A stretch of DNA of 64,000 nucleotides, taken from contig JACJID010000001.1 in NCBI GenBank assembly GCA_014138725.1, forward strand, positions 2,108,001 through 2,172,000, in the 5' to 3' direction. The stretch is from Kutzneria viridogrisea (GTDB lineage: Bacteria; Actinomycetota; Actinomycetes; Mycobacteriales; Pseudonocardiaceae). A model generated the notes under the pieces. That model did not search any database. It saw nothing but the letters and a program-made list of their open reading frames with translations, and had not been told where the DNA came from. Positions 44,314 to 63,439 of this stretch are shown here, piece by piece; position 1 is the stretch's first letter, and each line of letters opens with the position of its first letter. A program made the translations under genes and the position numbers.

Positions 44314-45726
44314 CTAGTGCCTGCCGGTGACGATCCTGTCGATGGCCAGCCCGAGTCGGCCGTACTTCTCGGTGTAGAACACGGGGATGACGCCCGGCGG
44401 GTCGGCGGGCCGGTCGACGTCCACGTAGTCGGTGCCCAGGTTGCAGAACACGGCGACCACGTAGTGGCGTCCGGGCTTGCCGGGCAGGGAGTGCACGATG
44501 CCCGCATCGCTGCCGGTGGTGTCGGTCCAGCCCGTCTTGTGTGCGAAGCTCACTTCCGCGGCGGCATCGCAGGGCCGAGTGTCCTGGCCGTACACGGCGT
44601 CGCCCACGGTCATGGTGCCGTCGGCGGGGTTGACCCAGCGCTGCGGGGTCAGCTGCGGGATGCCCGGCGCGGGGTAGCCGCGGCCGCACCAGTTCGTGGT
44701 GGACAGCATCTCGTTGTGGCCCTGCTCGCCGAGGGTCTTCAGGAGGAACTTCCGTGAGCTCGCGCTGAGCACCTCACGGGTGACCGCCTTGCCCGCCGGG
44801 GTGGTCCACAGGGTGCCGGGCCCGCCGTTGACGGCCAGCAACAGCTTGGCGGTGTCGATGGCGCTCATGTTCGCGCCGATCCAGTGCGCCCCGGTGCCCG
44901 GGTCGGTGCCGGTGAGCATCAGCGTGGGCAGGCCCAGGTCCACGAAGCCCTTGTTCATGGCGTCCACGGCCTTGAGGTCGTGCAGCATCTTGATCAGAGC
45001 GCAGGAGGACTCGTTCTTCGACATGGTGATCATCTCGTCGAGGAACTGCCGTACCGGCTTGGTCTCCGGCCCGCCGCAGGTCTCGCTGACGGTGCTGGGC
45101 CGGTACGCGTAGTCGGCGTCCAGGTCGACCTTGCCCTGGTCCACCAGGCGCAGCACGCCGAAGCCGACCATCAGCTTGAGCACCGAGGCCGGGAACGGGG
45201 AGGAGAAGTCGATCGGGGCCCGCTCCCGGCCGGGCAGCACGTCGCGGGTGCCCTTGCCGCCGTTGGTGTCCCACTCGGTGTCGTCCCACCACCGGTACCG
45301 GACCTGGTCGGTGGACAGGCTCTTCGCGTTGAGCGGCACCACGACCCCGTGCGGGTACTGCGGGCTGAGCAGTACGTCGGCCATGGCCACCGGGCGTCCC
45401 GCCTGGTCCAGCTCGATCACCGCGGCGTCCATGTTCGGCGTCTGGTGCAGCGGCTTGGGCTCGGCGGCCAGGCCGCGCCGCCGAGCCAGCTCCGCGGGGG
45501 CCGGGTCGTACTTGTCCCGCGCACCGGATCGGGCCAGTGCCGAGGAGGACCCGGGCGGGGTGGTGTCCAGCACGTTCTTGAAGTCCTGGGCGTCGATCGC
45601 GGCACGCAGCGCCTCGGCCAGCCCCGCGCTCGGTACCGGCGCTCCTGCCTGCGCGGGGGCGGTGCTTCCGGTGACCGCCGCGGCGGTGAGCAGGGCGGTG
45701 CAGGTCAGCAGCCGGCGGTGGCTCAT
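44314..45726 (-). CDS. Exported class A beta-lactamase-like serine hydrolase
   Basis: A 470-residue secreted protein. The signal peptide is MSHRRLLTCTALLTAAAVTG...APAQA. The penicillin-binding fold has Ser181-x-x-Lys184 (PFPASVLKLM), an SxN-like SKNESS and KTG in SFAHKTGWTD. A 150-residue N-terminal extension precedes the catalytic domain, longer than in ordinary beta-lactamases, so a D,D-peptidase or other cell-wall role is possible. The ATG at 45726 has GGGGAGG nine bases upstream. Several Cys in the C-terminal half may form disulfides. Confidence 0.85.
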   Translation of the reverse strand: MSHRRLLTCTALLTAAAVTGSTAPAQAGAPVPSAGLAEALRAAIDAQDFKNVLDTTPPGSSSALARSGARDKYDPAPAELARRRGLAAEPKPLHQTPNMDAAVIELDQAGRPVAMADVLLSPQYPHGVVVPLNAKSLSTDQVRYRWWDDTEWDTNGGKGTRDVLPGRERAPIDFSSPFPASVLKLMVGFGVLRLVDQGKVDLDADYAYRPSTVSETCGGPETKPVRQFLDEMITMSKNESSCALIKMLHDLKAVDAMNKGFVDLGLPTLMLTGTDPGTGAHWIGANMSAIDTAKLLLAVNGGPGTLWTTPAGKAVTREVLSASSRKFLLKTLGEQGHNEMLSTTNWCGRGYPAPGIPQLTPQRWVNPADGTMTVGDAVYGQDTRPCDAAAEVSFAHKTGWTDTTGSDAGIVHSLPGKPGRHYVVAVFCNLGTDYVDVDRPADPPGVIPVFYTEKYGRLGLAIDRIVTGRH

Positions 45727-45796
45727 CCGGTGGAACCTCCCCAAGTGGTGGAAGGTTCATCTTCTCCGTTGGAGCCGAGCCCCGCTCACCCGGGGG

Positions 45797-47131
45797 TCAG
45801 CGCACCGCGCCGGTGACCAACCAGGTCGTGCCCCGCGCGCGCCACACCAGCGCCACCAGGCGGGCGAGCACCCACACACCGATGGCCAGCCACAGGGTGA
45901 CCAGCCCGCCGCCCAGCAGGTACACCACCAGGGCCGCGGGCAGGAACACCACGGTGGTGACGACCCCGGCCAGGGCCAGGTAGCGCATGTCCCCCGCGCC
46001 GATCAGCACCCCGTCCAGCACGAACACCGGACCGGCCAGCGGTTGCAGCAGCGCCACGACGATCAGGGCGTCCAGCAGCAGCGACCGCACGGCCGGGTCG
46101 GTGGTGAACAGGGCGGGCAGCAGGCCGCGGGTGGCCAGCAGCAGCACCGCGAACAGCACACCGCAGGCCAGGCCCCACTGGGTCATCCGCCAGGTGGCCG
46201 ACCGGGTGCCCACCACGTCGCCCGCGCCAAGGAACCGGCCGGTGATCGCCTGCCCGGCCACGGCGATGGCGTCCAGGGCCAGCGCCAGCAGCCACCACAC
46301 CTGGAAGCTCACCTGGTACGCGGCGATGTCGGCGTCACCCATCCGCGTGGCCACGACGGTGCCCACGATCAGCACCACGCGCAGCGACAGTGTGCGGATC
46401 ACCAGGTTGAAGCCCGCCTTCGCGCTGGCGCGCAGCCCGGCGGCGTCCGGCCACACCGGCACCCCGTGCCGTCGCGCCCCGCGCAGCACCGCGAGCACGT
46501 ACACCAGCCCGCCCACGCTCTGCGCCAGCACCGTGCCCAGCGCTGACCCGGCGATGCCCCAGCCGAAGCCGAACACGAACGCGGCGTTGAGCGCGGCGTT
46601 GGCGGCGAACATGCCCACCGAGACCACCAGCGGGGTGCGGGTGTCCTGCAGGCCGCGCAGCACCCCGGTGCCCGCCAGCGTGACCAGCATGCCGGGCACG
46701 CCGAACAGGCTGATCCGCAGGTAGATCTCCGCCTGCGGGGCGACCGCCGCCGAGGCGCCGAACGCCTCCACGATCCACGGGGTCAGTGGCCAGCCCACCG
46801 CGATCACCGCCAGGCCGATGCCCACCGCCAGCCAGACCCCGTCCACGCCCTGGCGGATCGCCGCGGCCAGGTTGCCCGCACCGACCTGCCTGGCCACCGC
46901 CGCGGTCGTGCCGTAGGCGAGGAACACGCAGACGTTGATCAGCGTGCCCAGCGCCTGGCTGGCCACGCCCAGACCACCCAGTGGGGCGGTGCCCAGGTGG
47001 CCCACGATGGCCGAGTCGGTGAGCAGGAACAGCGGTTCGGCGACCAGCGCGCCGAACGCGGGCAGCGCCAGCCGCAGGATCTCCCTGTCGTGCGCCCTGT
47101 GCTGCTTTCCGGTGGCCGGTGGCCGGGTCAT
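45797..47131 (-). CDS. MATE-family efflux transporter (NRPS operon exporter)
   Basis: A 444-residue multidrug and toxic compound extrusion protein of the DinF/NorM type with twelve hydrophobic segments in two six-helix halves: ILRLALPAFGALVAEPLFLL with the family's AEPLF/L, GHLGTAPLGGLGVA, and second-half counterpart RTLSLRVVLIVGTVVATRMG. Uses Na+ or H+ antiport. It overlaps the thioesterase gene by ATGA, placing it last in the six-gene NRPS operon. The likely job is to export the operon product or protect the producer. Confidence 0.88.
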   Translation of the reverse strand: MTRPPATGKQHRAHDREILRLALPAFGALVAEPLFLLTDSAIVGHLGTAPLGGLGVASQALGTLINVCVFLAYGTTAAVARQVGAGNLAAAIRQGVDGVWLAVGIGLAVIAVGWPLTPWIVEAFGASAAVAPQAEIYLRISLFGVPGMLVTLAGTGVLRGLQDTRTPLVVSVGMFAANAALNAAFVFGFGWGIAGSALGTVLAQSVGGLVYVLAVLRGARRHGVPVWPDAAGLRASAKAGFNLVIRTLSLRVVLIVGTVVATRMGDADIAAYQVSFQVWWLLALALDAIAVAGQAITGRFLGAGDVVGTRSATWRMTQWGLACGVLFAVLLLATRGLLPALFTTDPAVRSLLLDALIVVALLQPLAGPVFVLDGVLIGAGDMRYLALAGVVTTVVFLPAALVVYLLGGGLVTLWLAIGVWVLARLVALVWRARGTTWLVTGAVR

Positions 47132-47841
47132 CGCTGCCCCTCAGGTGTGCGGTGCGCGCGCAGCGCGGTGCTGATCACGTCCAGGAACCGTGCCCGCGCG
47201 GTACGCGGGAAGAAGTGGTCGCCGGGCAGCTGGTGCGCGACGAACGGGCCGATCGTGCACTCCCGCCAGGCCAGCACCGAGGGCCAGGACACCGCCGTGT
47301 CCCCGCTGCCGCCGAACGCGGTGATCGGGCAGCGCAGCACTGGACCCGGCCGGTAGCTGTAGTGGTCGGACATGCCGAAGTCCGCGCGCAGCACCGGCAG
47401 TAGCAGCTCCATGAGTTCCTCGCTGGCCAGCACGGCCTGCGGTGTGCCGCCCATGCCGTACAGCCTGGCGCGGAACTGCGCCTCGTCCTGCTCCGAGCCG
47501 GGCGGCAGCTTGGGCGGGCGCATCGCCCCGCGCGCGGACACCGTGACCAGGTGCCGCACCGTGCGGCCGTGCCGCTGTTCCAGGCGCAGTGCCACCTCGA
47601 AGGCAAGGAACGCGCCGAAGCTGTAGCCCAGCAGGGCCACCGGCTCCTCGGCCTGAGCGAGCACGGTCTCGGTGAGCTCGTCGGCCAGCGCGGGCAGGTC
47701 GGTGGCGGGCGCCTCGCGGTAGCGCCCGCCCCGACCCGGCAGCTCCAGCGGGTGCACGCGGATCTGCTCCGGCAGGTCGGCCTGCCAGTCGTCGAAGATC
47801 CGCGCGGAACCGCCCGCGTAGGGCACGCAGAACAGCCTCAT
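47128..47841 (-). CDS. Type II thioesterase of the NRPS operon
   Basis: A 237-residue alpha/beta thioesterase of the GrsT type. The N-terminus MRLFCVPYAGGSARIFDDW is diagnostic, the nucleophile elbow is LLGYSFGAFLA with Ser74, and the catalytic His lies in LPGDHFFP near 216. Such enzymes remove mis-primed groups from carrier domains, or release products when no TE domain exists. The NRPS here has no C-terminal TE, so release by this enzyme is possible. ATG overlaps the stop of the MetRS-like gene. Confidence 0.9.
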   Translation of the reverse strand: MRLFCVPYAGGSARIFDDWQADLPEQIRVHPLELPGRGGRYREAPATDLPALADELTETVLAQAEEPVALLGYSFGAFLAFEVALRLEQRHGRTVRHLVTVSARGAMRPPKLPPGSEQDEAQFRARLYGMGGTPQAVLASEELMELLLPVLRADFGMSDHYSYRPGPVLRCPITAFGGSGDTAVSWPSVLAWRECTIGPFVAHQLPGDHFFPRTARARFLDVISTALRAHRTPEGQR

Positions 47842-49256
47842 GTCGCGTACCTGGTGCGCAGGCGCTCGGTCAGGCCCGGCAACAGCGGCCCGGCCAGTAC
47901 CGCGATGGCCCGCAGCCCGTGCCAGGCCAGGTCCGGGTCGGTGGACGCCCGGGCCGCCAGCAGGGCCAGCAGGTTCGCGGTGGACTGCGCGGCCTGGCGC
48001 AGGCTGAAGGTCTCCAGCGCGTAGGCACGTCGCATCCGATGACGATAGCGGCGCAGCAGGGCCGGTTCGGGTCCGTCGACCGGGTGGTGCCCGGCCAGCG
48101 CGGCCTCCACCCGCGCCAGCGGCTCGCGCAGTCCGGCGTCCACGGCCTTGACGAACTCCGCCTCGGTGAAGTTGGCGGTCTGCTGCTCGGGGTTGTGCAG
48201 CGCCAGGTAGAACCGGGCGCTGTCGGCCCCGTGCTTGACCAGCAGGTCCCGCGCCCAGATCAGGTGCCGCCTGCTCGTGGAGAACTTCGACCCGTCCAGG
48301 TGGTAGAACTCGTTGGTGATGATCGCGGTGGGCGTGAGCAGCCCGCCGTGCGCGAGCGCCAGCCCCAGGTGCGCCAGCGAGAAGTAGAACGTGTTGTCGT
48401 AGCCGAGGAACTGCACCAGCTCGTACCCGGAGCCGGCCTGCCAGTCGGCGCCCGCGATCCCGGCCATGTGGGTCAGGCCCGGCAGCATCTCCGCCCACAC
48501 GTTGAACACCTGCCCGCCGAAGCCCGCCAACGGCACGGACACGCCCCAGTCGGCGGGGTAGGTCACCGGGAAGTCCGGCAGCGGACGGGACAGCATCTCC
48601 CGCACGAAACCCAGCACGCGCGGGCGCATCGTGTCCCGGTGCTCGGCGTAGAACCGCACGAACTGCTCGCGGTAGTCCTCCAGCGGCAGCACCAGGATCG
48701 GCACCTCGCGCTGCTCCACCTCGGCCGCGGCGCGCACCCCGGTGCTCTGCCCGTACAGCAGCGAGTCCACGTCGTTGGGGTGCCCGCAGGTCTCGCAGAT
48801 CGCCCCGCAGGTGGCCGCGAAGCACTCCGGGCAGTACCCGGTTACGAACGCCTCCAGCAGGTACCGCCCGGTCCGCTGGCAGTAGGGGAAGCGCCAGGTG
48901 CGCCGCACGAGCTTGCCCCGCTGGTACAGCTCGGTGAAGAAGCCGCGCACATGCCGCAGGTAGGCCCGGTCGGGGCTGGTGAACGCGTCCAGCTCGATCT
49001 CCGCCAGGCGCAGCGTCTCGCGGATCTGCTCGGTGCAGCGCGCCGCCAGCACCTCCGGCGCCTGCTCCACGGCCTGCGCGGTGGTGACCACGTAGGTCTG
49101 GTGGTCGTCTCCGCCGCTGACGTAGCGCGCCTGGTTGCCCAACAGCCGCTGCGCCCGGCAGAACACGTCGGCGCCCAGGTAGGGCCCGGACAGGTGGCCG
49201 ACGTGCAGGTCCCCGTTGGTGGTCGGCGGGGTCGCGGTCACCAGGAACCGCCTCAC
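47838..49256 (-). CDS. Stand-alone MetRS-like protein, probable hydrazine-synthetase component
   Basis: A 472-residue class I aminoacyl-tRNA synthetase homologue closest in motif layout to methionyl-tRNA synthetase: HVGH (HIGH) at 18-21, KFSTS (KMSKS) near 321-325, and a four-Cys zinc knuckle region with CPEC and CETC. The C-terminal anticodon domain is shortened and degenerate. In Spb40, Tri28, PyrN and ForK a MetRS-like domain adenylates an amino acid (for example glycine) and esterifies it to an N-hydroxylated Lys/Orn, after which a cupin domain makes the N-N bond. The neighbours here are precisely a cupin and an N-monooxygenase. GTG at 49256 was chosen because of its GTGA overlap with the cupin gene; the frame stays open upstream to 49490. 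Confidence 0.85.
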   Translation of the reverse strand: MRRFLVTATPPTTNGDLHVGHLSGPYLGADVFCRAQRLLGNQARYVSGGDDHQTYVVTTAQAVEQAPEVLAARCTEQIRETLRLAEIELDAFTSPDRAYLRHVRGFFTELYQRGKLVRRTWRFPYCQRTGRYLLEAFVTGYCPECFAATCGAICETCGHPNDVDSLLYGQSTGVRAAAEVEQREVPILVLPLEDYREQFVRFYAEHRDTMRPRVLGFVREMLSRPLPDFPVTYPADWGVSVPLAGFGGQVFNVWAEMLPGLTHMAGIAGADWQAGSGYELVQFLGYDNTFYFSLAHLGLALAHGGLLTPTAIITNEFYHLDGSKFSTSRRHLIWARDLLVKHGADSARFYLALHNPEQQTANFTEAEFVKAVDAGLREPLARVEAALAGHHPVDGPEPALLRRYRHRMRRAYALETFSLRQAAQSTANLLALLAARASTDPDLAWHGLRAIAVLAGPLLPGLTERLRTRYAT

Positions 49257-49609
49257 GAGGCCTCCCCGAGCGGGCCCATCGACCACACCGACACCAGCTC
49301 CCACTCCTCGGTGGGCGAGCCGTTCTCGAAGTAGTGCACCTGCCCGGACCCGACCACCAGCGCGTCCCCGGGCCCCAGGTCCACCACCTGCCCGTCCACG
49401 TGTGCCACCCCGCTGCCGCGCACCACGTAGAACTGCTCGTGGTCCACGTGCGAGTGCGGGGTGGACACCGAGCCGGGTGCCACGACGCACACACCCATGC
49501 CGGTGTCCGAGGGCTCGGAACTGCCCCAGGGCAGGATCCGGCGGAACGCGCAGCCGTACACGTCGTGGAACTGCGACTCGGCGCGGCGCTGGACCTTGAA
49601 CTCACTCAT
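49253..49609 (-). CDS. Cupin, probable N-N-bond-forming component
   Basis: A 118-residue single-cupin protein. Both cupin motifs match exactly: GSVSTPHSHVDHEQFYVVRG (G-x5-HxH-x3-E-x6-G) and the second ending GQVHYFEN (P/G-x-G-x2-H-x3-N), giving a complete 3-His/1-Glu metal site. In fused hydrazine synthetases a zinc-binding cupin domain rearranges the ester made by the MetRS-like domain into an N-N bond. Here the cupin is a separate gene. It overlaps the monooxygenase stop (ATGA) and its own stop overlaps the MetRS-like start (GTGA). Confidence 0.86.
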   Translation of the reverse strand: MSEFKVQRRAESQFHDVYGCAFRRILPWGSSEPSDTGMGVCVVAPGSVSTPHSHVDHEQFYVVRGSGVAHVDGQVVDLGPGDALVVGSGQVHYFENGSPTEEWELVSVWSMGPLGEAS

Positions 49610-50940
49610 GCGTCGGCTCCTTCCAGGGGTGCGGGAACGGGGGTGAGCGCCCCGGCGCCGAAGGTGGCGTCGAGGATGTCCACGGCGCGGTGCGCGAGCA
49701 GGGACAGCAGGGTGCTGGTCAGCCCGTGGCTGTGCTCGGCGGCGCCGTGCAGGAACACCTTGGGCCGGAACCCGTCCGTGGTCTGCACCGAGTAGTCCCG
49801 GCGCACCAGGGGCGTGCCGTCGGCCTCACGCACCAGGTGCGGATCCAGGTCGGTGAGCAGGTCCCGGGCCTCGCGGAAGTCGTAGCCGGTGGCCAGCACC
49901 ACCCCGTCGTAGCGGTCGTGCGCGGTGTGGCCGGTGAGCAGGTCGCGCGCGGCCACACAGACCAGTGTGTCGTCCACGCTGGCGCCGAGCAGTTCGGTGA
50001 ACCTGCTCAACCGCAGCCGCAGCCCGCCGTGCACCCGCTGGTCGTAGAGCAACCGGGCGATGGCCTGGATGTCCTCCTCGTCCACGGCGCCGTAGTTGGT
50101 GATCCGCAGCTGGTCCAGGATCGCCCGGCGCTGCTCGGGGCCCGCGCCGTGGAACAGGTCCACCGACTCCGGGTTGAAGATCTCGTTGGCCAGCGGGCTG
50201 CTGTTGGCGGGCATCAGCGCGAACCCGCGGTGCGCCAGGGTGACCTGTGCTGCGGGGAACTCGGCCACCAGGTACTGGAAGATCTCCGCGGCGCTCTGCC
50301 CGGCACCGACCACCAGGAACCGGTAGGGCAGTGCGGTGCCGCGCCCGCGGTACGGCTCGATGCCGCGCAGGAACCGGCTGCTGTGCCACACCGCCCCGGA
50401 CTCCAGCGCGGCGGGCGCCACCCCGGGTGGGATGGCGGGCCGCCCGCCCGGGGCCAGGGACAGGTGCTCGGCGGACACCGTGCGCGGGCGGCCCGCCGGG
50501 TCGAGCAGGTCCACCTCCAGGTGGCCGACGGACCCGTCCTGGCCGAGGACCGGGCGGATCGCCTGGGCCGTGCAGTTGTAGGAGACGTACGGGGACAGTT
50601 GGGCGGCGACCCAGCGGAAGTAGTCGGCGTACTCCCGCCGGGTCGGGTGCAGTGTGCCCAGGTTGAGGAACTGCTCCAGCCGCCCCTTGCGGACCAGGTA
50701 GTTGGTGAAGGTGTACGGGCTGGTCGGGTCGTGCGGGGTGACCAGGTCCTTGAGGAAGGCCACTTGCATGCGCGCACCGTCCAGCAGCATGTCCGGGTGC
50801 CAGGCGAACTCCGGCCTGGACTCCAGGCAGTGCACCCTGGTCCGCACCGAGGACGGCCGGGTGGAGTCGCACACCGCGCTCAGCGACAGGTGGGACGGGC
50901 CGAAGCCGATGCCGAGCAGGCCGTAGCGCCGTGTGCCCAT
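49606..50940 (-). CDS. L-lysine/L-ornithine N-monooxygenase
   Basis: A 444-residue flavin-dependent N-hydroxylating monooxygenase (IucD/PvdA/SidA family). FAD loop GIGFGPSHLSL at 10-20, substrate-site region FAWHPDMLLDGARMQVAFLKDLVT, NADPH loop VVGAGQSAAEI near 215-225 and the C-terminal ATGYDF motif are all visible. It converts the side-chain amine of lysine or ornithine into a hydroxylamine. In an ordinary siderophore cluster this leads to hydroxamates; next to cupin and MetRS-like genes it more probably provides the N-hydroxy substrate for N-N bond formation. Lysine versus ornithine cannot be decided from sequence alone. Starts 5 bp after the NRPS stop. Confidence 0.9.
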   Translation of the reverse strand: MGTRRYGLLGIGFGPSHLSLSAVCDSTRPSSVRTRVHCLESRPEFAWHPDMLLDGARMQVAFLKDLVTPHDPTSPYTFTNYLVRKGRLEQFLNLGTLHPTRREYADYFRWVAAQLSPYVSYNCTAQAIRPVLGQDGSVGHLEVDLLDPAGRPRTVSAEHLSLAPGGRPAIPPGVAPAALESGAVWHSSRFLRGIEPYRGRGTALPYRFLVVGAGQSAAEIFQYLVAEFPAAQVTLAHRGFALMPANSSPLANEIFNPESVDLFHGAGPEQRRAILDQLRITNYGAVDEEDIQAIARLLYDQRVHGGLRLRLSRFTELLGASVDDTLVCVAARDLLTGHTAHDRYDGVVLATGYDFREARDLLTDLDPHLVREADGTPLVRRDYSVQTTDGFRPKVFLHGAAEHSHGLTSTLLSLLAHRAVDILDATFGAGALTPVPAPLEGADA

Positions 50941-50945
50941 GTCCG

Positions 50946-53900
50946 CTACCTGGTCGCCAGCTGACGGACCGTGCCGTCCTCGGTGAACAGTTCCCGCAGG
51001 GTGAAGGCGAAGCCCCGCTCCTGGGCCAGCGCCACCAGCTTCAGCGCCGCCAGCGAACTGCCGCCCAGCTCCAGGAACGGGGCCTGGGCGTCGACCTGCG
51101 CCACGCCGAGCACCTCCGACCACAGCGCGGCCAGTTCGACCTCGCGCGGGGTCTGCGGCGCCACGGGCTCACCGGCCTGGCGGGCCGGAACCGGTTGCGG
51201 CGCGGGCACTTCCCGGCCGGGCACGGCCTCGGCGACCAGCCCGGTGAGCTTGCCGACCGAGTCCGTGCCGCCGCTGGCGATGGCCGCCAGCACCTCGCGC
51301 AGCGCGCCCATCACGGCGTCCACCGAGGCGGCGTCGAAGTAGGCCGTGTCGTACTCCACCTGGAAGGACAGCTGGCCCTCCGCGGTGACGCCGACCGTGA
51401 ACGGGTAGTTGGTCCAGCCGAAGTTCTCCTCGTGCCGCACCGCGACCCCGGCGTGGGCCTCCCAGCCGATGCCGTGCGGGATGTTCTCGAAGATCAGCAG
51501 CGACTCGAACAGCGGGCGCCCGCTGGGCAGGTCGGGGTGCTGCTGGATCAGCGGCAGCGGGTAGTGGTCGTTGGCGCGGGCGTCGACCTGGGTGCGCTGC
51601 ACCTGGCGCAGCCACGCGCCCAGCGACTGCTCGGGGTCCAGCGGCAGGCGCATCGGCAGGATGTTGACGAAGATGCCGACCATCTCCTCCACCCCGGGCA
51701 GGGCCACCGGCCGGTGCGTGATCGTCATGCCGAAGCAGACGTCCTGCCGCCCGCTGATGCCGCCGATGACGGCCGCCCACGCGGCCTGCACCAGGGAGTT
51801 CAGCGTCAGCTGGTTGGCCCGCCCGTACGCGGTGAGCTGCTCGGTGAGCTGCTCGCCCATCGGGTACCTGGCCGCGGCGTGCATGTCCTGCCTGCTCGCG
51901 GACAGGCCCTGCGGCACCGCGCTGCCGATCGAGGTCGGGCCCTGGAACCCGGCCAGATGGGCCAGCCAGTAGTCGCGGGCCGAGTCGGTGTCCTGCTGGC
52001 CCACGTAGGACACGTAGTCGCTGAACGGCCGGGTGGTGGGCAGCTCGGCGGACACGCCGTCCCGCTCGGCCCGGTAGTTCTCCAGCGAGTCGCGCAGCAT
52101 GAGGAACAGCGACCACACGTCCAGGATCAGGTGGTGGTAGCTCATCACCAGCTGGCAGCGCGCCGGTCCGGTGCGGATCACGGTGAGCCGGAACAGCGGG
52201 GCGTGCTCGTAGGTGTAGCCGCGCGCCCGGTCCTCAGCCAGGTGCGCCACCAGGCGGGCGCGCAGTTCGGCCGGGTCCTCGGTGTCGGTCCAGTCCAGCA
52301 CCACCCACTCCAGCTCGGCCTGCCGCTGCACGACCTGCACCGGGTTGGCCAGCCCTCGGGTGGCGATCCAGATGCGCAGGATCTCGTGCCGGTCCACGAC
52401 CTGCTGCCAGGCCCGCCGGTACACCTCCAGGTCCAGCTCCCCGGTCAGCGTGTACAGGAACTGCTCCACGTAGACCCCGGAGTCGGGGTCGAGCAGCGAG
52501 TGGAACAGCATGCCCTTCTGCATCTCGGTGAGCGGGTAGACCTTCTCGATGCCCGCCGGGTCCTCGGCCAGGCGCAGCATGGCCTCGTGGTCCTCGTGCG
52601 TGGTGGCGAAGCCCGTCGGGGTGAAGTCCGTGCCCTGGGCCCCGCTGCGCCGGGCGCCCTCGATGTGCGCGGCCATCTCCGCGACGGTGGGCGTGGCGAA
52701 CACCTGGGTCGCGGTCAGGCCCAGCCCCTCGCGGTTGGCCCGCGCACTGATCATGAAGCCCTGGATGGAGTCCCCGCCCAGCGCGAGGAAGTTGTCGTGC
52801 ACGCCGACCCTGGGCACCGACAGCACCTCGGCCCACAACTGGCACAGGCTGGTCTCCAGCTCGGTGCGCGGGGCGGTGTAGTCCTCCACCAGCTCCAGCC
52901 GCGAACCCTCCAGTTCGGACAGTGCCTGCCGGTCCACCTTGCCGTTGTGGGTCAGCGGCAGCGCGTCGAGCACCAGGAAGCTCGCGGGCACCATGTACTC
53001 CGGCAACCGCCCGGCCAGGTGCTCGCGCAGCCGCGCCGCCGTCGGCGGGGTGCCCGCACAGGTCAGGTGGGCCACCAGCCGCTGGTGGCCGCCGACCCCG
53101 CGGCGCCCCGAGGCCACCGCCCCGGTGACCCCGGGCACCTCCTTGAGCCGGGCCTCCACCTCGCCCAGCTCCACCCGGTACCCGGCGATCTTGACCTGGT
53201 CGTCCAGCCTGCCCAGCAGCTCGATCCGCCCGTCCGAGGCGATCCGGCTCAGGTCCCCGGTGCGGAAGACCCTGCCCTGCGCGGTGTCGGTGAACTTCGC
53301 CGCGGTCAGCTCGGGCAGCCGGTCGTAGCCCTCGGCGATGCCCACCCCGGACAGGCACAGCTCCCCGGTCTGACCCTGCGGCACCTCACGCAACTGCTCG
53401 TCGAGCACGCGTGGGGTCAGCTCGGCCGGGAAACCCACCGGGACGAATCCCTCGTACGCCGTTCCGGGTAAACATTCCCAGTAGGCGCCGTAGAGCGCCT
53501 CGGTGAGCCCATACACGTTGAAAAGCCTCGCCGGAAGACCGGTCGCGAAATACTTCTCCGGAAGGTCGCCCGGCATGCCGTCACTGCTGCAGAAGACGTA
53601 TTTGAGCGAGGTGTTAGCCGTGAATTCGGCACTGTCCAGCATGCCCGACAACAACGCCGGTACCACCATCAACGTGGTCACCCGACCGCTGTTGACCAGG
53701 CTCACCAACCGGTCCGGGTCCTTGTGCTCACCCGGCGGGACGATCACCGCGGTTCCACCGGACAGCACCGGCCAGAACACCTCGCGGACCAGGTTGGTGA
53801 TGCTCAGCGTGGTGCGCAGCAGGTGCCGGTCGCCCGGCTCCAGCGGGAACGTGGACTGCAACCAGCGCTGGCCGCTGAGCAGCGCGCGGTGGCTGAGCAC

Positions 53901-54377
53901 CACGCCCTTGGGCGTCCCGGTGGAACCGGAGGTGTAGAAGACGAACGCCAGCGCGTCCTCCGGGAGGTCCACCCGGACGAAGCCGGTCGTGGCCTCGGCA
54001 AGGTCCTCCACGGCCACGGTGCGCACCCCGGCCGGGTAGCGGGCGCCGAGCAGGGCGCGCTCGGTCAGCACCACCTGGGCCTGCGAGAACTCCAGGATCG
54101 CCGAACGCCGCTCGTCGGGGTCCTCGGGGTCGACCGGCACGCAGACCGCGCCGCAGCGCAGCAGCCCGAACAGCGCGGGCAGCAGGTCCAGCGAGCGCGA
54201 CAGGTGCAGGCCGACCCGGTCACCGGGGCGCACCCCGTGCCCGGCCAGCCCGGCTGCCACCCGGTCGGCGGCGGCGTCCACCTCGCCGTAGGCGGTGCTC
54301 GCCTCACCCAGCACGGCGGCGGTCGCCTGTGGTGTGCCCTGGGCCTGTGCGGTCAGCAGATCGTGCAGGAACGGCAT
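50946..54377 (-). CDS. Non-ribosomal peptide synthetase, A-T-C-T
   Basis: A 1143-residue NRPS. Adenylation domain 1-505: A3 FVFYTSGSTGTPKG at 145-158, A5 NVYGLTE at 287-293, A7 RTGDL, A8 KIAGYRVELGEVE and Lys480 in A10. Alignment of SITNLVREVF (192-201) to the A4 motif puts Thr194 where the amino-group-binding Asp235 (GrsA numbering) normally sits. Carrier 1 at 505-575 with GGDSI (Ser537); condensation domain about 612-1045 with HHLILDV at 748-754; carrier 2 at 1075-1143 with GGSS (Ser1108). There is no thioesterase domain. The ATG at 54377 is the first plausible start; upstream sequence looks non-coding. Confidence 0.9.
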   Translation of the reverse strand: MPFLHDLLTAQAQGTPQATAAVLGEASTAYGEVDAAADRVAAGLAGHGVRPGDRVGLHLSRSLDLLPALFGLLRCGAVCVPVDPEDPDERRSAILEFSQAQVVLTERALLGARYPAGVRTVAVEDLAEATTGFVRVDLPEDALAFVFYTSGSTGTPKGVVLSHRALLSGQRWLQSTFPLEPGDRHLLRTTLSITNLVREVFWPVLSGGTAVIVPPGEHKDPDRLVSLVNSGRVTTLMVVPALLSGMLDSAEFTANTSLKYVFCSSDGMPGDLPEKYFATGLPARLFNVYGLTEALYGAYWECLPGTAYEGFVPVGFPAELTPRVLDEQLREVPQGQTGELCLSGVGIAEGYDRLPELTAAKFTDTAQGRVFRTGDLSRIASDGRIELLGRLDDQVKIAGYRVELGEVEARLKEVPGVTGAVASGRRGVGGHQRLVAHLTCAGTPPTAARLREHLAGRLPEYMVPASFLVLDALPLTHNGKVDRQALSELEGSRLELVEDYTAPRTELETSLCQLWAEVLSVPRVGVHDNFLALGGDSIQGFMISARANREGLGLTATQVFATPTVAEMAAHIEGARRSGAQGTDFTPTGFATTHEDHEAMLRLAEDPAGIEKVYPLTEMQKGMLFHSLLDPDSGVYVEQFLYTLTGELDLEVYRRAWQQVVDRHEILRIWIATRGLANPVQVVQRQAELEWVVLDWTDTEDPAELRARLVAHLAEDRARGYTYEHAPLFRLTVIRTGPARCQLVMSYHHLILDVWSLFLMLRDSLENYRAERDGVSAELPTTRPFSDYVSYVGQQDTDSARDYWLAHLAGFQGPTSIGSAVPQGLSASRQDMHAAARYPMGEQLTEQLTAYGRANQLTLNSLVQAAWAAVIGGISGRQDVCFGMTITHRPVALPGVEEMVGIFVNILPMRLPLDPEQSLGAWLRQVQRTQVDARANDHYPLPLIQQHPDLPSGRPLFESLLIFENIPHGIGWEAHAGVAVRHEENFGWTNYPFTVGVTAEGQLSFQVEYDTAYFDAASVDAVMGALREVLAAIASGGTDSVGKLTGLVAEAVPGREVPAPQPVPARQAGEPVAPQTPREVELAALWSEVLGVAQVDAQAPFLELGGSSLAALKLVALAQERGFAFTLRELFTEDGTVRQLATR

Positions 54378-54646: not shown

Positions 54647-55213
54647 TCAGCGCACCGCTATGTCGATGACCGGGTGCTCTGACGGGTCCAACCAGTCCAG
54701 CAGTGTCCTGAGTTCGGCCACCGGTATCGCCACACAGCCCGCCGTCGGCCCGCCGCCCGTGACGTGCAGGAAGAAGGCCGAGCCCGCACCGGGCACGACC
54801 GGGCTCCGGTTGTAGTCGATCACGACGGCGTGGTCGTACACGGCACCCGACCTGCCCAGCGCCTCACCGGCCGACTCGTCGAACGGGCACCCGCCCGCCT
54901 GGCAGCGCTGGTAGGTGTTGTAGAGCGGGGAAGCCGGATCGGACACCCACCAGTCGGCGGCGTCGATCTCCCGATAGGGCAGCCGGGTTCGCACGGGCAG
55001 GTGGCCGAAGCCCTCGGTCAGCGGCCACACCCCGGCCGGGGTACGGGCACTGGACTCGCTCGCGCGGCCGATGCCCTGGCTGCCGACGAAGGCCCGCACC
55101 GGGTCCAGCACACGCCGCCAACAGCCCGCGCCGCGCTGCCAGGCGGTCAACACCGCTGTGGTGGCCCGCTCGTGCTCGGCGCGCACGGTGATCACCTGCC
55201 CGGCGCGGCCCAT
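54647..55213 (-). CDS. L,D-transpeptidase-family (YkuD) protein
   Basis: A 188-residue protein whose catalytic motif is FFLHVTGGGPTAGCVAIP, the YkuD His...Ser/Thr-x-Gly-Cys site with the nucleophile Cys near 172. Upstream GVWPLTEGFG matches the family's T-P-x-G-x-Y/F strand. L,D-transpeptidases cross-link peptidoglycan (3-3 links) outside the membrane, yet no signal peptide or membrane helix is seen in this start; the true start may lie elsewhere or export may be non-classical. It follows the response regulator gene by 9 bp and may be co-expressed with the two-component pair. Confidence 0.82.
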   Translation of the reverse strand: MGRAGQVITVRAEHERATTAVLTAWQRGAGCWRRVLDPVRAFVGSQGIGRASESSARTPAGVWPLTEGFGHLPVRTRLPYREIDAADWWVSDPASPLYNTYQRCQAGGCPFDESAGEALGRSGAVYDHAVVIDYNRSPVVPGAGSAFFLHVTGGGPTAGCVAIPVAELRTLLDWLDPSEHPVIDIAVR

Positions 55214-55222: not shown

Positions 55223-55870
55223 CTAGCCCGGGGTGATGAAGCCCGATTCGTAGGCGGTGATCACGGCTTGGGTGCGGTCGCGCGCACCCAGCTTGGTCAG
55301 CACGTTGCCCACATGCGTCTTGACCGTCTCCACGCTGACCACGAACTGCTCGGCGATCTCCGCGTTGGACATGCCCTTGGCGATCAGCCGCAGCACCTCG
55401 GCCTCGCGGTCGGTCAGCTGCACCCCGCGCAGCGCCGTGTCCCGGTGCGGCGTCCGGTGCGCGGCCAGCCCCCGGATCGCGGCCGGGAACAGCAGCGAGT
55501 CCCCGTTGGCCACCGTCCGCACCGCCTGCACGATCTCCGCGGGCCGCGCGCGTTTGAGCAGGAAGCCACTGGCCCCGGCGCGCAGCGCGTCGTAGACGTA
55601 GTCGTCGTTCTCGAAGGTCGTCACCACCAGCACCTTCGGCGGTGACTGCATGGTGGACACCAGGTGCTGGGTCGCCTGGATTCCGTCCACCGCGGACATC
55701 CGCACGTCCATCAGCACCACGTCCGGCCGCAGCCTGGCCACCACGGCCGCCACCTCGGCCCCGTCGGTGCACTCACCGACCACGCACAGGTCCGGCTCAG
55801 CGTCGATGATCGCCCGCAGCCCGGTGCGGATCAGGTCCTCGTCGTCGACCAGGACGACCGTGGTCGTCAT
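55223..55870 (-). CDS. NarL/LuxR-type response regulator
   Basis: A 215-residue response regulator: receiver with VLVDDEDLIR, phosphoacceptor Asp55 in VVLMDVRM, conserved Lys in SGFLLKRA, then a C-terminal LuxR helix-turn-helix LTDREAEVLRLIAKGMSNAEIAEQF and VKTHVGNVLTKLGARDRTQAV. The ATG at 55870 overlaps the stop of its kinase gene (ATGA). It binds DNA as a dimer when phosphorylated; the 21-bp-phased array upstream of the kinase gene is a candidate but unproven target. Confidence 0.92.
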   Translation of the reverse strand: MTTTVVLVDDEDLIRTGLRAIIDAEPDLCVVGECTDGAEVAAVVARLRPDVVLMDVRMSAVDGIQATQHLVSTMQSPPKVLVVTTFENDDYVYDALRAGASGFLLKRARPAEIVQAVRTVANGDSLLFPAAIRGLAAHRTPHRDTALRGVQLTDREAEVLRLIAKGMSNAEIAEQFVVSVETVKTHVGNVLTKLGARDRTQAVITAYESGFITPG

Positions 55871-57108
55871 GCCCCGGCCCGCAGCGGCAGCCGCACGCAG
55901 ACCCGCCACTGCCCGTCCTCGGCGCCCGCGCTGAACCGCCCGCGCAGCACCGTGACCCGCTCCCGCATGCCCGCCAACCCCCTGCCGCCGCCGTCCCGGT
56001 CCGCGCCGCCCGCGGTGCCGAGCGGGTTGACCAGTTCCAGTTCCAGGTTGCCCAGCAGCACCGCGATGCGCAGCGTCACCGGGACCTTACCGGCATGGCG
56101 TAGCGCGTTGGTCAGCCCCTCCTGCACGATCCGGTACGCCTCCCTGGACACCGCGAGCGGAACCGAGGACAGCTCACCGGCCAGCTCCTCGTGCACCGTG
56201 ACGCCCGCGGACCTCGTGGTGGCCAACAGCTGTGGCAGTTCGTCCAATGTGGGCTGTGGCGCGGTGCTCGTGCTGGCCTCCCGCAGCAGTCCCAGCACGT
56301 GGTCCAGGTCCGCCAGCGCCGCGCGGCCCGCCTCCTCGATCGCCAGCAGCGCGCGGTCGGCGAACTCCGGGTCGGTGGCCAGCACCCGGCGGGCCGCACC
56401 GGCCTGGATCGTGGTGATCGTCAGCGCGTGGCCCACCGAGTCGTGCAGCTCCCTGGCGAGTCGGTTGCGCTCGGCGAGCAGCGTGGCCTGGCGCTCCAAC
56501 TCGGCGACGCGCTCACTGGGCGTGGGCCCGAGCAGCGCGGGCACGGCGCGCATGAGCACCACGCCAAGGCCCGCGCCGAGGTAGATCGCGGACACGATCA
56601 GCGTGACGCCCAGCAGCGGGATCCAGGCGCTGGACCAGCCGTGCTGGAGGGTCCAGCGGGCCACGCCCACGTCCAGCACCGGCACGTCGGCCAGCGGGGT
56701 GAGCAGGAACCCGATGCCGATCGGCACGGCGAACAGCGCCGCCGCGGCCGCTACGCCACCCAGTAGCAGGTGCAGCACGTACCAGGTGGCGGTGCGCCAG
56801 CGAACCTCCCAGCTGTAGCCCCCGCCCGTGGGCACCGTGAACGACAAGCCGAGCAGGGCCCGCACCGCGGCGGCCTCGACGATGCGCACGGCGGACAGGA
56901 ACGCGGTCAGCACCGGGGGCAGCACGAACAGCAACGGGGTGACGATCAGGTACGGCAGCCCGGGCAACTGCTGGTGCAGCACGGTGTTCACGGTCAGCTC
57001 GATGGCTAGGTAGAAAAACAGCAGGGCGGCGCCCAGCAGCAGGTACACCCAGCGGCGGTAGGTGGAGCCGCTGACCAGTGGTCCGAACACCACCCCGAGC
57101 CGTGACAC
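55867..57108 (-). CDS. Membrane histidine kinase (NarL-partner type)
   Basis: A 413-residue sensor kinase. About six N-terminal hydrophobic segments (for example WVYLLLGAALLFFYLAIEL and GVTLIVSAIYLGAGLGVVLM) form the sensor domain, followed by a HisKA_3 dimerisation helix LARELHDSVGHALTI with His near 220, and an HATPase with REAYRIVQEGLTNALRHAG and GRGLAGMRERV. The GTG at 57108 starts VSRLGVVFG; the open frame upstream runs through a repeat array and is not believed. It phosphorylates the co-translated response regulator. The signal is unknown. Confidence 0.9.
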   Translation of the reverse strand: MSRLGVVFGPLVSGSTYRRWVYLLLGAALLFFYLAIELTVNTVLHQQLPGLPYLIVTPLLFVLPPVLTAFLSAVRIVEAAAVRALLGLSFTVPTGGGYSWEVRWRTATWYVLHLLLGGVAAAAALFAVPIGIGFLLTPLADVPVLDVGVARWTLQHGWSSAWIPLLGVTLIVSAIYLGAGLGVVLMRAVPALLGPTPSERVAELERQATLLAERNRLARELHDSVGHALTITTIQAGAARRVLATDPEFADRALLAIEEAGRAALADLDHVLGLLREASTSTAPQPTLDELPQLLATTRSAGVTVHEELAGELSSVPLAVSREAYRIVQEGLTNALRHAGKVPVTLRIAVLLGNLELELVNPLGTAGGADRDGGGRGLAGMRERVTVLRGRFSAGAEDGQWRVCVRLPLRAGA

Positions 57109-57134
57109 CCCGCAATCCTGCCACGCCCCACCAC

Positions 57135-57285
57135 GAGTCCCGCTCACACGCACACGAGTCCCGCTGACCGGCGCGCGAGTCCCGTCCTGGGGCGGCCGAG
57201 TCCCGCTCACCGCGGCGGTACCGCCCCCGGCTGGACGGGACTCGGTGTCGGCTGAGCGGGACTCGCGCGCCGGAGGGCGGGACTC
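57135..57285. repeat. 21-bp-phased GAGTCCCG array, four direct and three inverted
   Basis: GAGTCCCG occurs at 57135, 57156, 57177 and 57198 (exactly 21 bp apart), and its complement CGGGACTC at 57236, 57257 and 57278 (again exactly 21 bp apart). The last copy overlaps the LOG-gene stop codon. The array fills the gap upstream of the histidine kinase gene. Two helical turns of spacing put every copy on the same DNA face. It could be a multi-site regulator target or a foldback structure. Confidence 0.85.
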
Positions 57286-57868
57286 AGTTGGTGGTCTTGA
57301 GCCACTTGCGGTCGGGGGCGTGCCAGTCGCGCAGCGCGGGCAGCAACTCGGTGACCTCGTCGACCACCAGCAGCGCCTCGCGGAACCCGGCACGGATGAA
57401 CCCCGTGTCCACCATGTGGTCCACCGCCTTCACCAGCGGCTGCCAGAAGCCCGCCACGTCCAGCAGGGCCACCGGCTTGCCGTGCAGGCCGAGCTGCTGC
57501 CAGGTCCAGACCTCGAACAGCTCCTCCAGCGTGCCCGCACCACCGGGCAGCGCCACGAAGGCGTCGGCGGCCTCGGCCATCACCGCCTTGCGCTCGTGCA
57601 TGGAGCCGACGACCTCCAGGCGAGTCAGCCCCGAGTGGCCCACCTCCAGGTCGACCAGCGACTGCGGGATGACCCCGTGCACCTCGCCGCCCGCGGCCAG
57701 CGCCGCGTCGGCCACCACACCCATCAGCCCGACCCGCGCCCCGCCGTAGACCAGGCCCAGGCCCTCGGTGGCCAGCAGTCTGCCCAGGTCCTCGGCGGCC
57801 TGGGCGTACGTCGGGGAGTTGCCCGTTGAGGAGCCGACGAAGACTGCGACGCGCGACAGGGATCCCAT
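57284..57868 (-). CDS. LOG-family nucleotide 5'-phosphate phosphoribohydrolase
   Basis: A 194-residue Rossmann protein of the LOG/TIGR00730 family. The signature [16 protein letters not shown] is complete, and [16 protein letters not shown] and [15 protein letters not shown] carry the nucleotide-binding loops. LOG enzymes cleave ribose 5-phosphate from cytokinin or other nucleoside monophosphates; the bacterial physiological substrate is often simply AMP-like. Normal length. It is monocistronic or leads into the array upstream of the histidine kinase. Confidence 0.9.
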
Positions 57869-57904
57869 GATCGCACCTTAGCGGGCAGCGCGACCAGGAC
57901 GTGC

Positions 57905-57953
57905 CATGAAAGTGCCGTTTGAGGCGTTGAACGCCAGGAAGGGCACTTTCATG
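57905..57953. repeat. Intergenic palindrome, type 2 (copy 1)
   Basis: CATGAAAGTGCC (57905-57916) pairs with GGCACTTTCATG (57942-57953), and an inner GGCG-TTGAA-CGCC adds to the stem. Located between two leftward genes; it overlaps the last codons of the dioxygenase gene. Confidence 0.85.
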
Positions 57954-58701
57954 ACGCCTGCCCCGTGAGGGCGGTGCGGATGGCGAGTTCGACTGGGGAC
58001 GAGCCCTGTGCGATGTCGAACGGGCCCGCGGGCTGCAACGGGGGCTGGGCCATGAACCTGGGGCGGGTGCCGTGGTGCGGCTGGGCGGCGTGCACCAGGA
58101 AGGGATGGCACAGGTACACGTCGCCAGGGGAGCCGGTGGCGAGCACGGTGGGCCGGTGGGCGGAGACCTGGTCAACCTCGGCGGCGATGGTGAACGGGGA
58201 GGCGCCGGTCTCGCCGAAGCGGGCGAGCACCGGCGGCACGTCCAGGTGCGAGCCCACGCGGATCCTGGTGGGGGCCTCCTGCGGGCCGACCTCGCTGAAC
58301 AGGAACAGCATCAGCAGCGCCCGCTCGCGCGAGGACACGTTGGCGTGGTACTGCGTGGCGCCCTCGGGCAGGAAGCTGGCCTCGATGTGCCAGCCCGCGT
58401 CGTCGGGTTCCTCCTCGTGCGGGAAGCGCAGCGGGAAGGACCCGAGCGAGCGGCGTGGCAGCCACCGGCCGGGCCCGACCAACTCGTCGAACGCGGCGTG
58501 CAGCGCCGGGGTGTTGGCCGCCTCGATGAACGGGGGTTCGGTGCGGTCGAACACCCAGTGCACCGGCTTGGTCCACGTGCCGGGGTCCTGGGGATCGCAG
58601 CCGGTCTGCCGCCAGAGGATCTCGGCGCAGGCCGACGCGGTGTCCACCGGGAAGGCGCCTTCGACCTTGACGAAGCCGTCCGCGAGGAACTGATCACGCA
58701 T
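57949..58701 (-). CDS. PhyH-like Fe(II)/2-oxoglutarate dioxygenase
   Basis: A 250-residue phytanoyl-CoA dioxygenase-family protein: FLADGFVKVEGAFP at the N-terminus, WHIEASFLPEG where the iron motif HxD should be (here His-x-Glu), CHPFLVHAAQPHHGTRPRF with the distal His and the 2-oxoglutarate-binding Arg. The Asp-to-Glu change may keep iron binding. The family hydroxylates lipids, amino acids or metabolites. The ATG at 58701 starts MRDQFLADG; another ATG at 58716 is five codons upstream. No biosynthetic partner is adjacent. The stop region lies in a palindrome. Confidence 0.8.
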   Translation of the reverse strand: MRDQFLADGFVKVEGAFPVDTASACAEILWRQTGCDPQDPGTWTKPVHWVFDRTEPPFIEAANTPALHAAFDELVGPGRWLPRRSLGSFPLRFPHEEEPDDAGWHIEASFLPEGATQYHANVSSRERALLMLFLFSEVGPQEAPTRIRVGSHLDVPPVLARFGETGASPFTIAAEVDQVSAHRPTVLATGSPGDVYLCHPFLVHAAQPHHGTRPRFMAQPPLQPAGPFDIAQGSSPVELAIRTALTGQAS

Positions 58702-58737
58702 CGGGCCATGGTGCACGGTGAAACCGGCTGGCGCAGC

Positions 58738-59934: not shown

Positions 59935-59945
59935 GCGCCGATCGT

Positions 59946-59998
59946 GCCATGAAAGTGCCGTTGCTGGCATTCAGCGCCAGCAACGGCACTTTCATGGC
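59946..59998. repeat. Intergenic palindrome, type 2 (copy 2)
   Basis: Perfect 22 bp arms (59946-59967 and 59977-59998) beginning GCCATGAAAGTGCC, with a nine-base centre. It separates the SpoU fusion start from the SDR gene stop and is the most regular type 2 copy. Confidence 0.88.
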
Positions 59999-60005
59999 AT
60001 CGCGC

Positions 60006-60785
60006 TCACGCCTGCAAGCCGCCGTCCACGCGCAGGACGGTGCCGGTGACGTAGGAGGACCTGTCGCTGAGCAGCCAGGCGGCGGCCTGGGCGATCTCCT
60101 CGGGGGCGGCCGCACGGCGCAGCGGGGTCCGCGCCGCGATCTGTTCGACGACACCGGGCGAGTGCGACTCCCAGGTTTGGATCATCTCGGTGAGCGTGCT
60201 GCCGGGGGCGATCGCGTTGACGCGGATGCCTTCGGGCCCGTAGGTGACGGCGGCGGACTCGGTGAGGCTGTTGACGGCCCGCTTCATCGCGCCGTACGCG
60301 GGCAGTTCGGGGTTGCCCATCAGGCTGCCGACGCTGGAGTTGTTGACGATGGCCCCGGTACCCGCGGTGGCGCGGATGGCGGCGACCTCGGCGACCATGG
60401 CCAGCCACGGGCCCTTGAGGTTCACGGCGTAGAGGCGGTCGAAGTCGGCCTCCAGCGCCTGGTCCATGGGGCCGGGCGGCGCGATCGTCGCGCCGTTGTT
60501 GAAGGCCACGTCGAGGCGGCCGTACAGCAGCACGGCCTGGTCGACGGCGGCGCGCACGCTGTTGGCCTCGGCAAGGTCGCACACGATGTAGTCGGCGGTC
60601 CCTCCTGCCGCCCGGATCTCCTCGGTCACGGTCCTGAGCTGGTCCTCGGTCCGGGCCGCGAGCAGCACGCGGGCGCCTTCACGGGCGAACAGCCGCGCCG
60701 CGGCGGCGCCGATGCCACGCCCCGCGCCGGTGATGAAAGCGACCTTGTCAGTCAGCAGGCCGAGGCTGTTCACGGTGTTGTTCAT
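60006..60785 (-). CDS. SDR-family oxidoreductase
   Basis: A 259-residue classical short-chain dehydrogenase: NAD(P) loop TGAGRGIG at 19-26, NNGA near 91, catalytic Ser in NNSSVGS and YGAMK (Tyr-x3-Lys) near 163-167, and the C-terminal SSYVTGTVLRVDGGLQA. Uses NAD(P)H to reduce or oxidise a hydroxy/keto group; the substrate is unknown. It is divergent from the XRE regulator and shares a 45 bp palindromic operator, so it is probably the regulator's target. Confidence 0.9.
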   Translation of the reverse strand: MNNTVNSLGLLTDKVAFITGAGRGIGAAAARLFAREGARVLLAARTEDQLRTVTEEIRAAGGTADYIVCDLAEANSVRAAVDQAVLLYGRLDVAFNNGATIAPPGPMDQALEADFDRLYAVNLKGPWLAMVAEVAAIRATAGTGAIVNNSSVGSLMGNPELPAYGAMKRAVNSLTESAAVTYGPEGIRVNAIAPGSTLTEMIQTWESHSPGVVEQIAARTPLRRAAAPEEIAQAAAWLLSDRSSYVTGTVLRVDGGLQA

Positions 60786-63436: not shown

Positions 63437-63439
63437 GGC

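What the first reader, a model, noticed from the sequence alone, without database searches (positions are those of the whole stretch)
45797..54377. Compact operon for N-N bond chemistry: NRPS, N-monooxygenase, cupin, MetRS-like, TE, MATE
Directly seen: six leftward genes with 5 bp or overlapping junctions encoding these families. Known: Lys/Orn N-hydroxylase plus a cupin-MetRS protein makes hydrazines (Spb38/Spb40; Tri28, PyrN and ForK are homologous). Inference: the operon hydroxylates Lys or Orn, joins it to an amino acid through an N-N bond, then builds and exports a small peptide-like metabolite. No Spb39-like oxidase for cleaving the hydrazine is in the operon, so the amino acid-hydrazine itself may be incorporated.
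Basis: partly seen in the sequence, partly recalled or inferred. Interest (0 to 1): 0.92.

Follow-up and report, generated by a model that had tools for sequence, protein, structure and literature searches.

The report
Compact operon predicted to make hydrazines
A tight block of six genes in an actinomycete looks like a small factory that joins two amino acids through a rare nitrogen-nitrogen bond and passes the product to a peptide-building enzyme with an unusual selector; the bond-forming part is a known kind of enzyme, the way it is used may not be.

Summary
The six genes are real, leftward and tightly packed (45797-54377). NMO, cupin and MetRS-like protein look like a split cupin/MetRS hydrazine synthetase with its N-hydroxylase: the cupin keeps the metal set and catalytic Glu; the MetRS-like protein keeps its ATP motifs, has lost the anticodon-reading residues and groups with cupin-linked homologues. 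Split pairs are published, so the N-N core is a new member of a known family. Three other loci (two on Streptomyces plasmids) carry the same six genes in the same order. Seven more share the NRPS-NMO-cupin-MetRS core but add a second NRPS, an ATP-grasp and a decarboxylase-like gene. New here: the NRPS adenylation domain has Thr in place of Asp235 in 11 of 11 sequences; among 362 Streptomyces genomes its four close relatives are in the four genomes with a close MetRS homologue; and homologues of known hydrazine-cleaving enzymes were found near 0 of 11 clusters. I infer that the NRPS takes up the uncleaved hydrazine amino acid. The amino acids joined, the product and its role are unknown; nothing was assayed. 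The TE is a stand-alone enzyme, and the last carrier domain has no A domain of its own.

The parts
50946..54377 (-). NRPS, 1143 aa, A-T-C-T; A-domain code T N R V F S V Y G K with Thr in place of Asp235; both carriers keep the Ser (GGDS 534, GGSS 1105); C domain HHxxxD at 748
49606..50940 (-). Lysine/ornithine-type flavin N-hydroxylase, 444 aa
   Evidence: best solved relatives: MbtG 276 bits, KtzI 249, ornithine monooxygenase 3s5w 242
49253..49609 (-). Stand-alone cupin, 118 aa; H52, H54, E58, H92 match PyrN H50, H52, E56, H90
47838..49256 (-). MetRS-like amino acid ligase, 472 aa; HVGH and KFSTS motifs and D50 (E. coli D52 position) kept, anticodon-reading residues lost
47128..47841 (-). Stand-alone (type II-like) thioesterase, 237 aa, GYSFG
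45797..47131 (-). MATE-family exporter, 444 aa

Best explanation
A biosynthetic operon built on a split cupin/MetRS hydrazine synthetase. (1) The NMO hydroxylates the side-chain amine of Lys or Orn. (2) The MetRS-like enzyme adenylates a second amino acid, probably small, and transfers it to the hydroxylamine oxygen instead of tRNA. (3) The zinc cupin rearranges this ester to an N-N bond. (4) The NRPS A domain, which has no Asp to hold an alpha-amine, loads the N-N-linked amino acid, probably uncleaved, on its first carrier, and the C domain joins it to a residue on the second carrier. (5) The stand-alone TE releases or edits, and the MATE protein exports. Steps 1-3 are inferred from homology to assayed enzymes with catalytic residues kept; I give them about 0.88. 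Step 4 with an uncleaved hydrazine is about 0.4; step 5 is family-level inference. Nothing was assayed.
For: Families. Cupin metal set and catalytic Glu present. The assayed cupin RHS1 (WP_007299751.1) sits with NMO and MetRS-like genes in Rhodococcus DK180; its role and that of PyrN are in PMC8664883. MetRS-like protein: 10-row clade at 100/100 with types I and II, inside a 47-row fork at 100/99 of MetRS-like proteins; the anticodon residues N, R, W are kept in 3 of 3 true MetRS and read R, A, T here. Trio linkage: same-strand NMO within 6 kb in 46 of 46 loci found by MetRS similarity, same-strand cupin in 41 of 46. A domain: Thr235 in 11 of 11, Asp235 in 16 of 16 next-nearest domains examined, of 19 listed. 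The four hits at 75-76% identity to this A domain in 362 Streptomyces genomes are the four genomes with a close MetRS homologue. Homologues of cleaving enzymes: 0 of 11 clusters at E 1e-4, against 25 of 43 other MetRS-like loci at E 1e-10, 20 of 38 without the query sources.
Against: No activity data. The window cupin aligns only weakly to RHS1 (single-sequence phmmer E 0.0025; rank 39 by fold). RHS1's own MetRS partner, the only assayed one compared, is on a very long branch (3.34), scores lower against the window protein (135 bits, 31%) than two true MetRS do (154 and 151 bits, 29%), and aligns Ala where the window has D50. One cupin-linked MetRS-like protein, L127, falls beside the true MetRS (83/83, long branch). 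The predicted MetRS structure failed (pLDDT 48). A cleaving enzyme could be encoded elsewhere in the 10.2-Mb genome; I did not search the whole genome for one. Asp235 is also missing in A domains for hydroxy, keto and aryl acids and in the Phe-activating McyG, so Thr235 does not prove a hydrazine substrate. What loads the second carrier has not been identified.
Confidence: 0.75

Rival explanations
1. Same N-N core, but the hydrazine is cleaved by an oxidase or dehydrogenase encoded elsewhere, and the NRPS pathway uses the resulting free hydrazino acid, as azaserine and triacsin do.
For: In the review passages I read, the characterised pathways whose later steps are described cleave or convert the hydrazine. 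Thr235 would also suit an alpha-hydrazino acid.
Against: No homologue of the L133 FAD oxidase and saccharopine dehydrogenases, the L132 saccharopine dehydrogenase, the L131 and L136 FAD oxidases or the L012 DAO-like oxidase in 11 of 11 clusters, nor in about 15 kb more upstream and 12.5 kb more downstream of three type I loci, although 20 of 38 other MetRS-like loci have one.
Confidence: 0.3
2. The NRPS A domain activates an unrelated non-amino acid (hydroxy, keto or aryl acid), and the hydrazine enters as the nucleophile taken up by the C domain or the second carrier.
For: Loss of Asp235 is described for hydroxy, keto and aryl acid A domains; the C domain and the second carrier need a partner and no second A domain is present in the operon.
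Against: None of the six genes looks like a maker of such an acid, and the genes shared by both cluster types are only NRPS1, NMO, cupin and MetRS-like. In the 362 genomes searched the A domain occurs only with the hydrazine genes.
Confidence: 0.25
3. A hydroxamate siderophore operon: the NMO product is acylated, and the cupin and MetRS-like genes are accessories.
For: Among solved proteins the NMO scores best against MbtG, then KtzI and an ornithine monooxygenase.
Against: A same-strand cupin and an NMO sit within 6 kb of the MetRS-like gene in 41 of 46 loci. The antiSMASH metallophore rule uses a MetRS-like gene to exclude ornithine-monooxygenase hits (PMC12971057, passages). No uptake gene is among the six, but I ran no dedicated search beyond them.
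Confidence: 0.06
4. The MetRS-like gene is a second MetRS giving self-resistance.
For: Class I MetRS catalytic domain.
Against: Anticodon residues lost, best NCBIfam MetRS score 246 bits against a cut-off of 553, overlapping its cupin and TE neighbours, and two other MetRS-like frames in the genome, on C6 and C10, the first with housekeeping-looking neighbours (judged by eye).
Confidence: 0.02

Closest known systems
Split cupin/MetRS pairs: RHS1 and partner of Rhodococcus jostii (assayed); listed pairs such as Dpn5-Dpn6, Kit1-Kit2, Bac1-Bac2, Ral1-Ral2
   Same: Separate cupin and MetRS-like genes near an NMO; metal-binding spacing and catalytic Glu kept
   Different: RHS1 has Asp63 where this cupin has H52. 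Its partner uses Glu and, by alignment at 31% identity, has Arg at the E. coli H301 position where this clade has Phe. The RHS1-type locus L132 has a saccharopine dehydrogenase; this operon has none. The other listed pairs could not be compared (sequences not held)
PyrN, Spb40, Tri28, AzsN didomain hydrazine synthetases
   Same: Same two catalytic domains and expected reaction
   Different: Fused in those, split here; in the passages read, the s56-p1, triacsin and azaserine routes go on through hydrazinoacetate
Azaserine cluster (azs) and its match on S. lavendulae pSA3239 (L133)
   Same: NMO, cupin and MetRS-like parts and an NRPS; azs also has a thioesterase, AzsB
   Different: azs uses an FAD oxidase, acyltransferase, AMP-dependent ligase and a Cy-A-CP NRPS (passages); here an A-T-C-T NRPS with Thr235
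Type I relatives (L008-L011, L088-L090)
   Same: NMO, cupin and MetRS-like proteins at 63-71% identity, A domain at 76-77%; same A-domain code except position 331
   Different: Add a second NRPS with A code D L F T L S L W S K, a EutQ-like cupin, an ATP-grasp and a diaminopimelate-decarboxylase-like protein; no TE or MATE homologue in the seven loci of about 20 kb, one TE hit (36%) further downstream of one

Membership tests
Cupin/MetRS-like hydrazine synthetase | Cupin with metal-binding residues and catalytic Glu (PyrN H50/H52/E56/H90; RHS1 D63/H65/E69/H103) | tested here: met
   H52, H54, E58, H92; reference residues
Cupin/MetRS-like hydrazine synthetase | MetRS-like domain with ATP-binding motifs but no tRNA role | tested here: met
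   HVGH, KFSTS kept; N391/R395/W461 equivalents lost (E. coli residue numbers recalled). tRNA independence itself not testable here
Cupin/MetRS-like hydrazine synthetase | Adjacent flavin N-hydroxylase of the Lys/Orn type | tested here: met
Cupin/MetRS-like hydrazine synthetase | Groups with assayed members in a tree, not with true MetRS | tested here: inconclusive
   Groups with cupin-linked homologues, but the only assayed member in the tree (RHS1's partner) is on a branch of 3.34 and its place is unsure, and L127 falls with true MetRS
Cupin/MetRS-like hydrazine synthetase | ATP-dependent N-N bond formation, zinc in the cupin | not testable with these tools
   needs purified proteins
Canonical methionyl-tRNA synthetase | Anticodon-reading residues and NCBIfam equivalog score | tested here: not met
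Hydrazinoacetate (Spb38-39-40) pathway | Spb39/AzsM-type FAD oxidase that cleaves the hydrazine | tested here: not met
   No hit at E 1e-4 in the 64-kb window; the whole genome was not searched
alpha-Amino-acid A domain | Asp at GrsA position 235 | tested here: not met
   Thr194 of the NRPS, and Thr in 11 of 11 sequences; an exception to the rule, McyG with Val, is known
Type II thioesterase | Stand-alone thioesterase with GxSxG, similar to RifR, YbtT, surfactin TE subunit | tested here: met
   that these are type II enzymes is recalled
Hydroxamate siderophore NRPS | Acylation of the hydroxylamine, uptake genes | not tested
   No dedicated search; the MetRS-like gene argues against

The most novel reading that the evidence does not exclude
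The A domain is the first of a class that selects an intact, two-headed hydrazine amino acid (two amino acid skeletons joined side-chain N to alpha-N), so that the N-N bond becomes a branch or bridge inside a peptide. Arg at position 239 could hold the second carboxylate and Thr at 235 replaces the unneeded amine clamp. Both cluster types would then elaborate one common building block.
Probability: 0.35. Interest if true: 0.75.

Novelty: new variant of a known kind. Interest (0 to 1): 0.52.

Why it matters
The N-N core is not new, but a six-gene operon with one single-A NRPS is a very small hydrazine-to-peptide system and easy to express whole. If the uncleaved hydrazine is loaded, it would add a building block type to NRPS chemistry and a selectivity code for finding more. 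The four type II and seven type I clusters give a ready comparison.

Tried and rejected
Structure of the MetRS-like protein: predicted from seven sequences, pLDDT 48, not used. Fold search with the cupin model: many cupins score alike, RHS1 only rank 39, so fold was not used as proof. Lys versus Orn: MbtG scores above KtzI and an ornithine monooxygenase, but this was not taken as an answer. The second amino acid: the pocket lacks the Arg aligned in RHS1's Glu-using partner and shares V, W, M with the azaserine-type enzyme L133, which suggests a small residue such as Gly or Ala; I hold this loosely, as the eight published pocket residues were not readable here. Flanking genes (beta-lactamase-like 44314-45744, L,D-transpeptidase-like 54647-55213): no homologue beside the other three type II loci, so left out of the operon. 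C-domain subtype was not tested (only lists solved relatives) and is not used.

Literature: from the listings (open-access library; two searches listed only 20 of 46 and 25 of 63 papers) I saw no paper whose title or abstract start describes this gene set. One search (PDB codes of the nearest solved MetRS-like chains) found nothing; one search was for A domains. The 2024 mining study behind Dpn5-Dpn6 and Kit1-Kit2 was not read, so overlap with it cannot be excluded.
Full report
What is there. Six leftward genes at 45797-54377 encode an A-T-C-T NRPS, an N-hydroxylating monooxygenase (NMO), a stand-alone cupin, a MetRS-like protein, a thioesterase and a MATE exporter. Junctions are 5 bp or 4-bp overlaps. 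No other NMO, cupin or MetRS hit was found in window 1-45000 or 55301-64000 (E 1e-4). In the genome (10.25 Mb, unnamed) the MetRS-like protein matches itself and, far weaker, a frame on C6 (32%) that looks like the housekeeping MetRS by its neighbours, one on C10, and parts of two other synthetase-like frames.

Is it a hydrazine synthetase? The published family couples an N-hydroxy amino acid to an amino acid: the MetRS-like part makes an unstable ester, the zinc cupin rearranges it to an N-N bond, and the two parts occur fused or separate (PMC8664883, parts 1-4 of 7 of the text read; PMC11705231, passages and section 15 read). The window cupin has H52, H54, E58 and H92 at the positions of PyrN H50, H52, E56, H90. 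In 48 aligned cupins H54, E58 and H92 are in 48 of 48 and H52 in 46 (fused rows L121 and L123 were left out, N-terminal pieces of L133 and L135 added). The alignment slips by one residue at RHS1, whose Asp63, His65 and Glu69 have the same spacing. With a profile that left RHS1 out, the RHS1 structure 5uqp is third among solved chains, E 6e-16, behind 4rd7 and plu4264. By single sequence the match is weak, E 0.0025, and by fold RHS1 ranks 39th.

The MetRS-like protein keeps the HIGH and KMSKS motifs and the Asp that holds the alpha-amine in MetRS. At the anticodon-reading positions all three true MetRS have N, R, W; the window has R, A, T. In a 56-row tree (L128 not included) it sits in a 10-row clade (100/100) inside a 47-row fork (100/99) of MetRS-like proteins. 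Against this: the tree has long branches, above all RHS1's partner (3.34), whose place is unsure; that partner scores 135 bits against the window protein, less than two true MetRS (154, 151), and aligns Ala at the Asp; and L127, which has a cupin and NMOs nearby, falls beside true MetRS (83/83). A same-strand NMO lies within 6 kb of the MetRS-like gene in 46 of 46 loci, a same-strand cupin in 41 of 46 (L093, L095 and L116-L118 gave none by this test).

Distribution. MetRS-like hits at E 1e-60, the window's own genome included in the first two, are in 82 of 390 genomes of the family, 15 of 394 drawn from the class and 71 of 392 of one genus. That genus is Streptomyces, judging by two contigs whose match starts equal those in named records, one also equal in length. 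Close homologues (64-70%) are rare: 4 of those 392, four more in a scan of named genomes and two on Streptomyces plasmids.

Two cluster types. Type II is the window operon: NRPS, NMO, cupin, MetRS-like, TE, MATE in the same order in L091 (unnamed Streptomyces), L128 (S. nigrescens plasmid SNP1) and L129 (S. angustmyceticus plasmid p1). Type I (L008-L011, L088-L090) shares NRPS1, NMO, cupin and MetRS-like genes and adds a second NRPS, a EutQ-like cupin, an ATP-grasp and a decarboxylase-like gene (functions of the added genes judged by eye from sequence, not by a profile search).

The NRPS. Aligned to LgrA, the A domain has Thr at GrsA position 235, where Asp holds the alpha-amine. The code T N R V F S V Y x K is the same in 11 of 11 type I and II sequences except at position 331. 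In 362 Streptomyces genomes, with four candidates scored per genome, 23 have a hit at E 1e-95: four at 75-76% identity, the same four genomes that hold a close MetRS homologue, and 19 at 41-45%; the 16 of those 19 that came as loci all have Asp235. Loss of Asp235 is known for hydroxy, keto and aryl acids and for one Phe domain (PMC11253843, passages). So the domain is unusual and tied to the hydrazine genes, but the substrate is not proved. The second carrier has no A domain in the operon; how it is loaded is unknown.

Is the hydrazine cleaved? I searched with the azaserine-type FAD oxidase and two saccharopine dehydrogenases of L133, the saccharopine dehydrogenase of L132, FAD oxidases of L131 and L136 and the DAO-like oxidase of L012. 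None hit any of the 11 clusters at E 1e-4 (the window's 64 kb and ten loci of 20-25.5 kb), while 25 of 43 other MetRS-like loci hit at E 1e-10, 20 of 38 without the five source loci. L008-L011 and L088-L090 begin at or inside NRPS1, so I fetched about 15 kb upstream and 12.5 kb further downstream of L088-L090, and 17 kb upstream of L091: again no cleaving-enzyme hit; the one hit was a TE. The upstream side of L008-L011 was not seen. A cleaving enzyme elsewhere in the genome, or of another family, is not excluded.

The TE is closest to stand-alone thioesterases, RifR and YbtT among the named ones. It may edit, or release the product.

Verdict. The enzyme family is known, including split pairs. 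New, as far as the searches above reach, are the operon type and the constant Thr235 A domain tied to it. My best reading, that the intact hydrazine is the NRPS building block, is a testable inference.

Noticed in passing
L106, L116, L117, L120, L121 (MetRS-like genes): In these five MetRS-like proteins the position of the Asp that holds the alpha-amine (E. coli D52) is Gln or His and the Trp at 253 is Asn, Asp or His (four further members of the same tree clade were not printed). Four of the five have an FAD oxidase homologue in the locus. They may act on a different substrate, though RHS1's working partner also aligns a non-Asp there.
   Followed up: no
PDB 4rd7 and 4mv2/4q29 (not in the window): Two solved cupins named only as Cupin 2 protein (Salinispora) and plu4264 (Photorhabdus) score above RHS1 with the profile of these cupins and may be N-N-forming cupins.
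   Followed up: no
L131 and hits H5-H8, H13: NMO, cupin and MetRS-like genes sit on a plasmid typed as conjugative of onion-associated Pantoea ananatis; cupin and MetRS-like annotations also lie under the matches on three other Pantoea plasmids and one Klebsiella variicola plasmid.
   Followed up: partly
   Followed up: partly
L136 (Deinococcus ficus plasmid pDFI1): An NMO-cupin-MetRS-like trio with two FAD-dependent oxidoreductases and three ATP-grasp genes in Deinococcus, far from actinomycetes.
   Followed up: no
L132 (Rhodococcus DK180), 1875-4665: The gene of the assayed cupin RHS1 lies between a lysine 2,3-aminomutase and a luciferase-like monooxygenase, hinting at beta-lysine or further oxidation in that pathway.
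   Followed up: no
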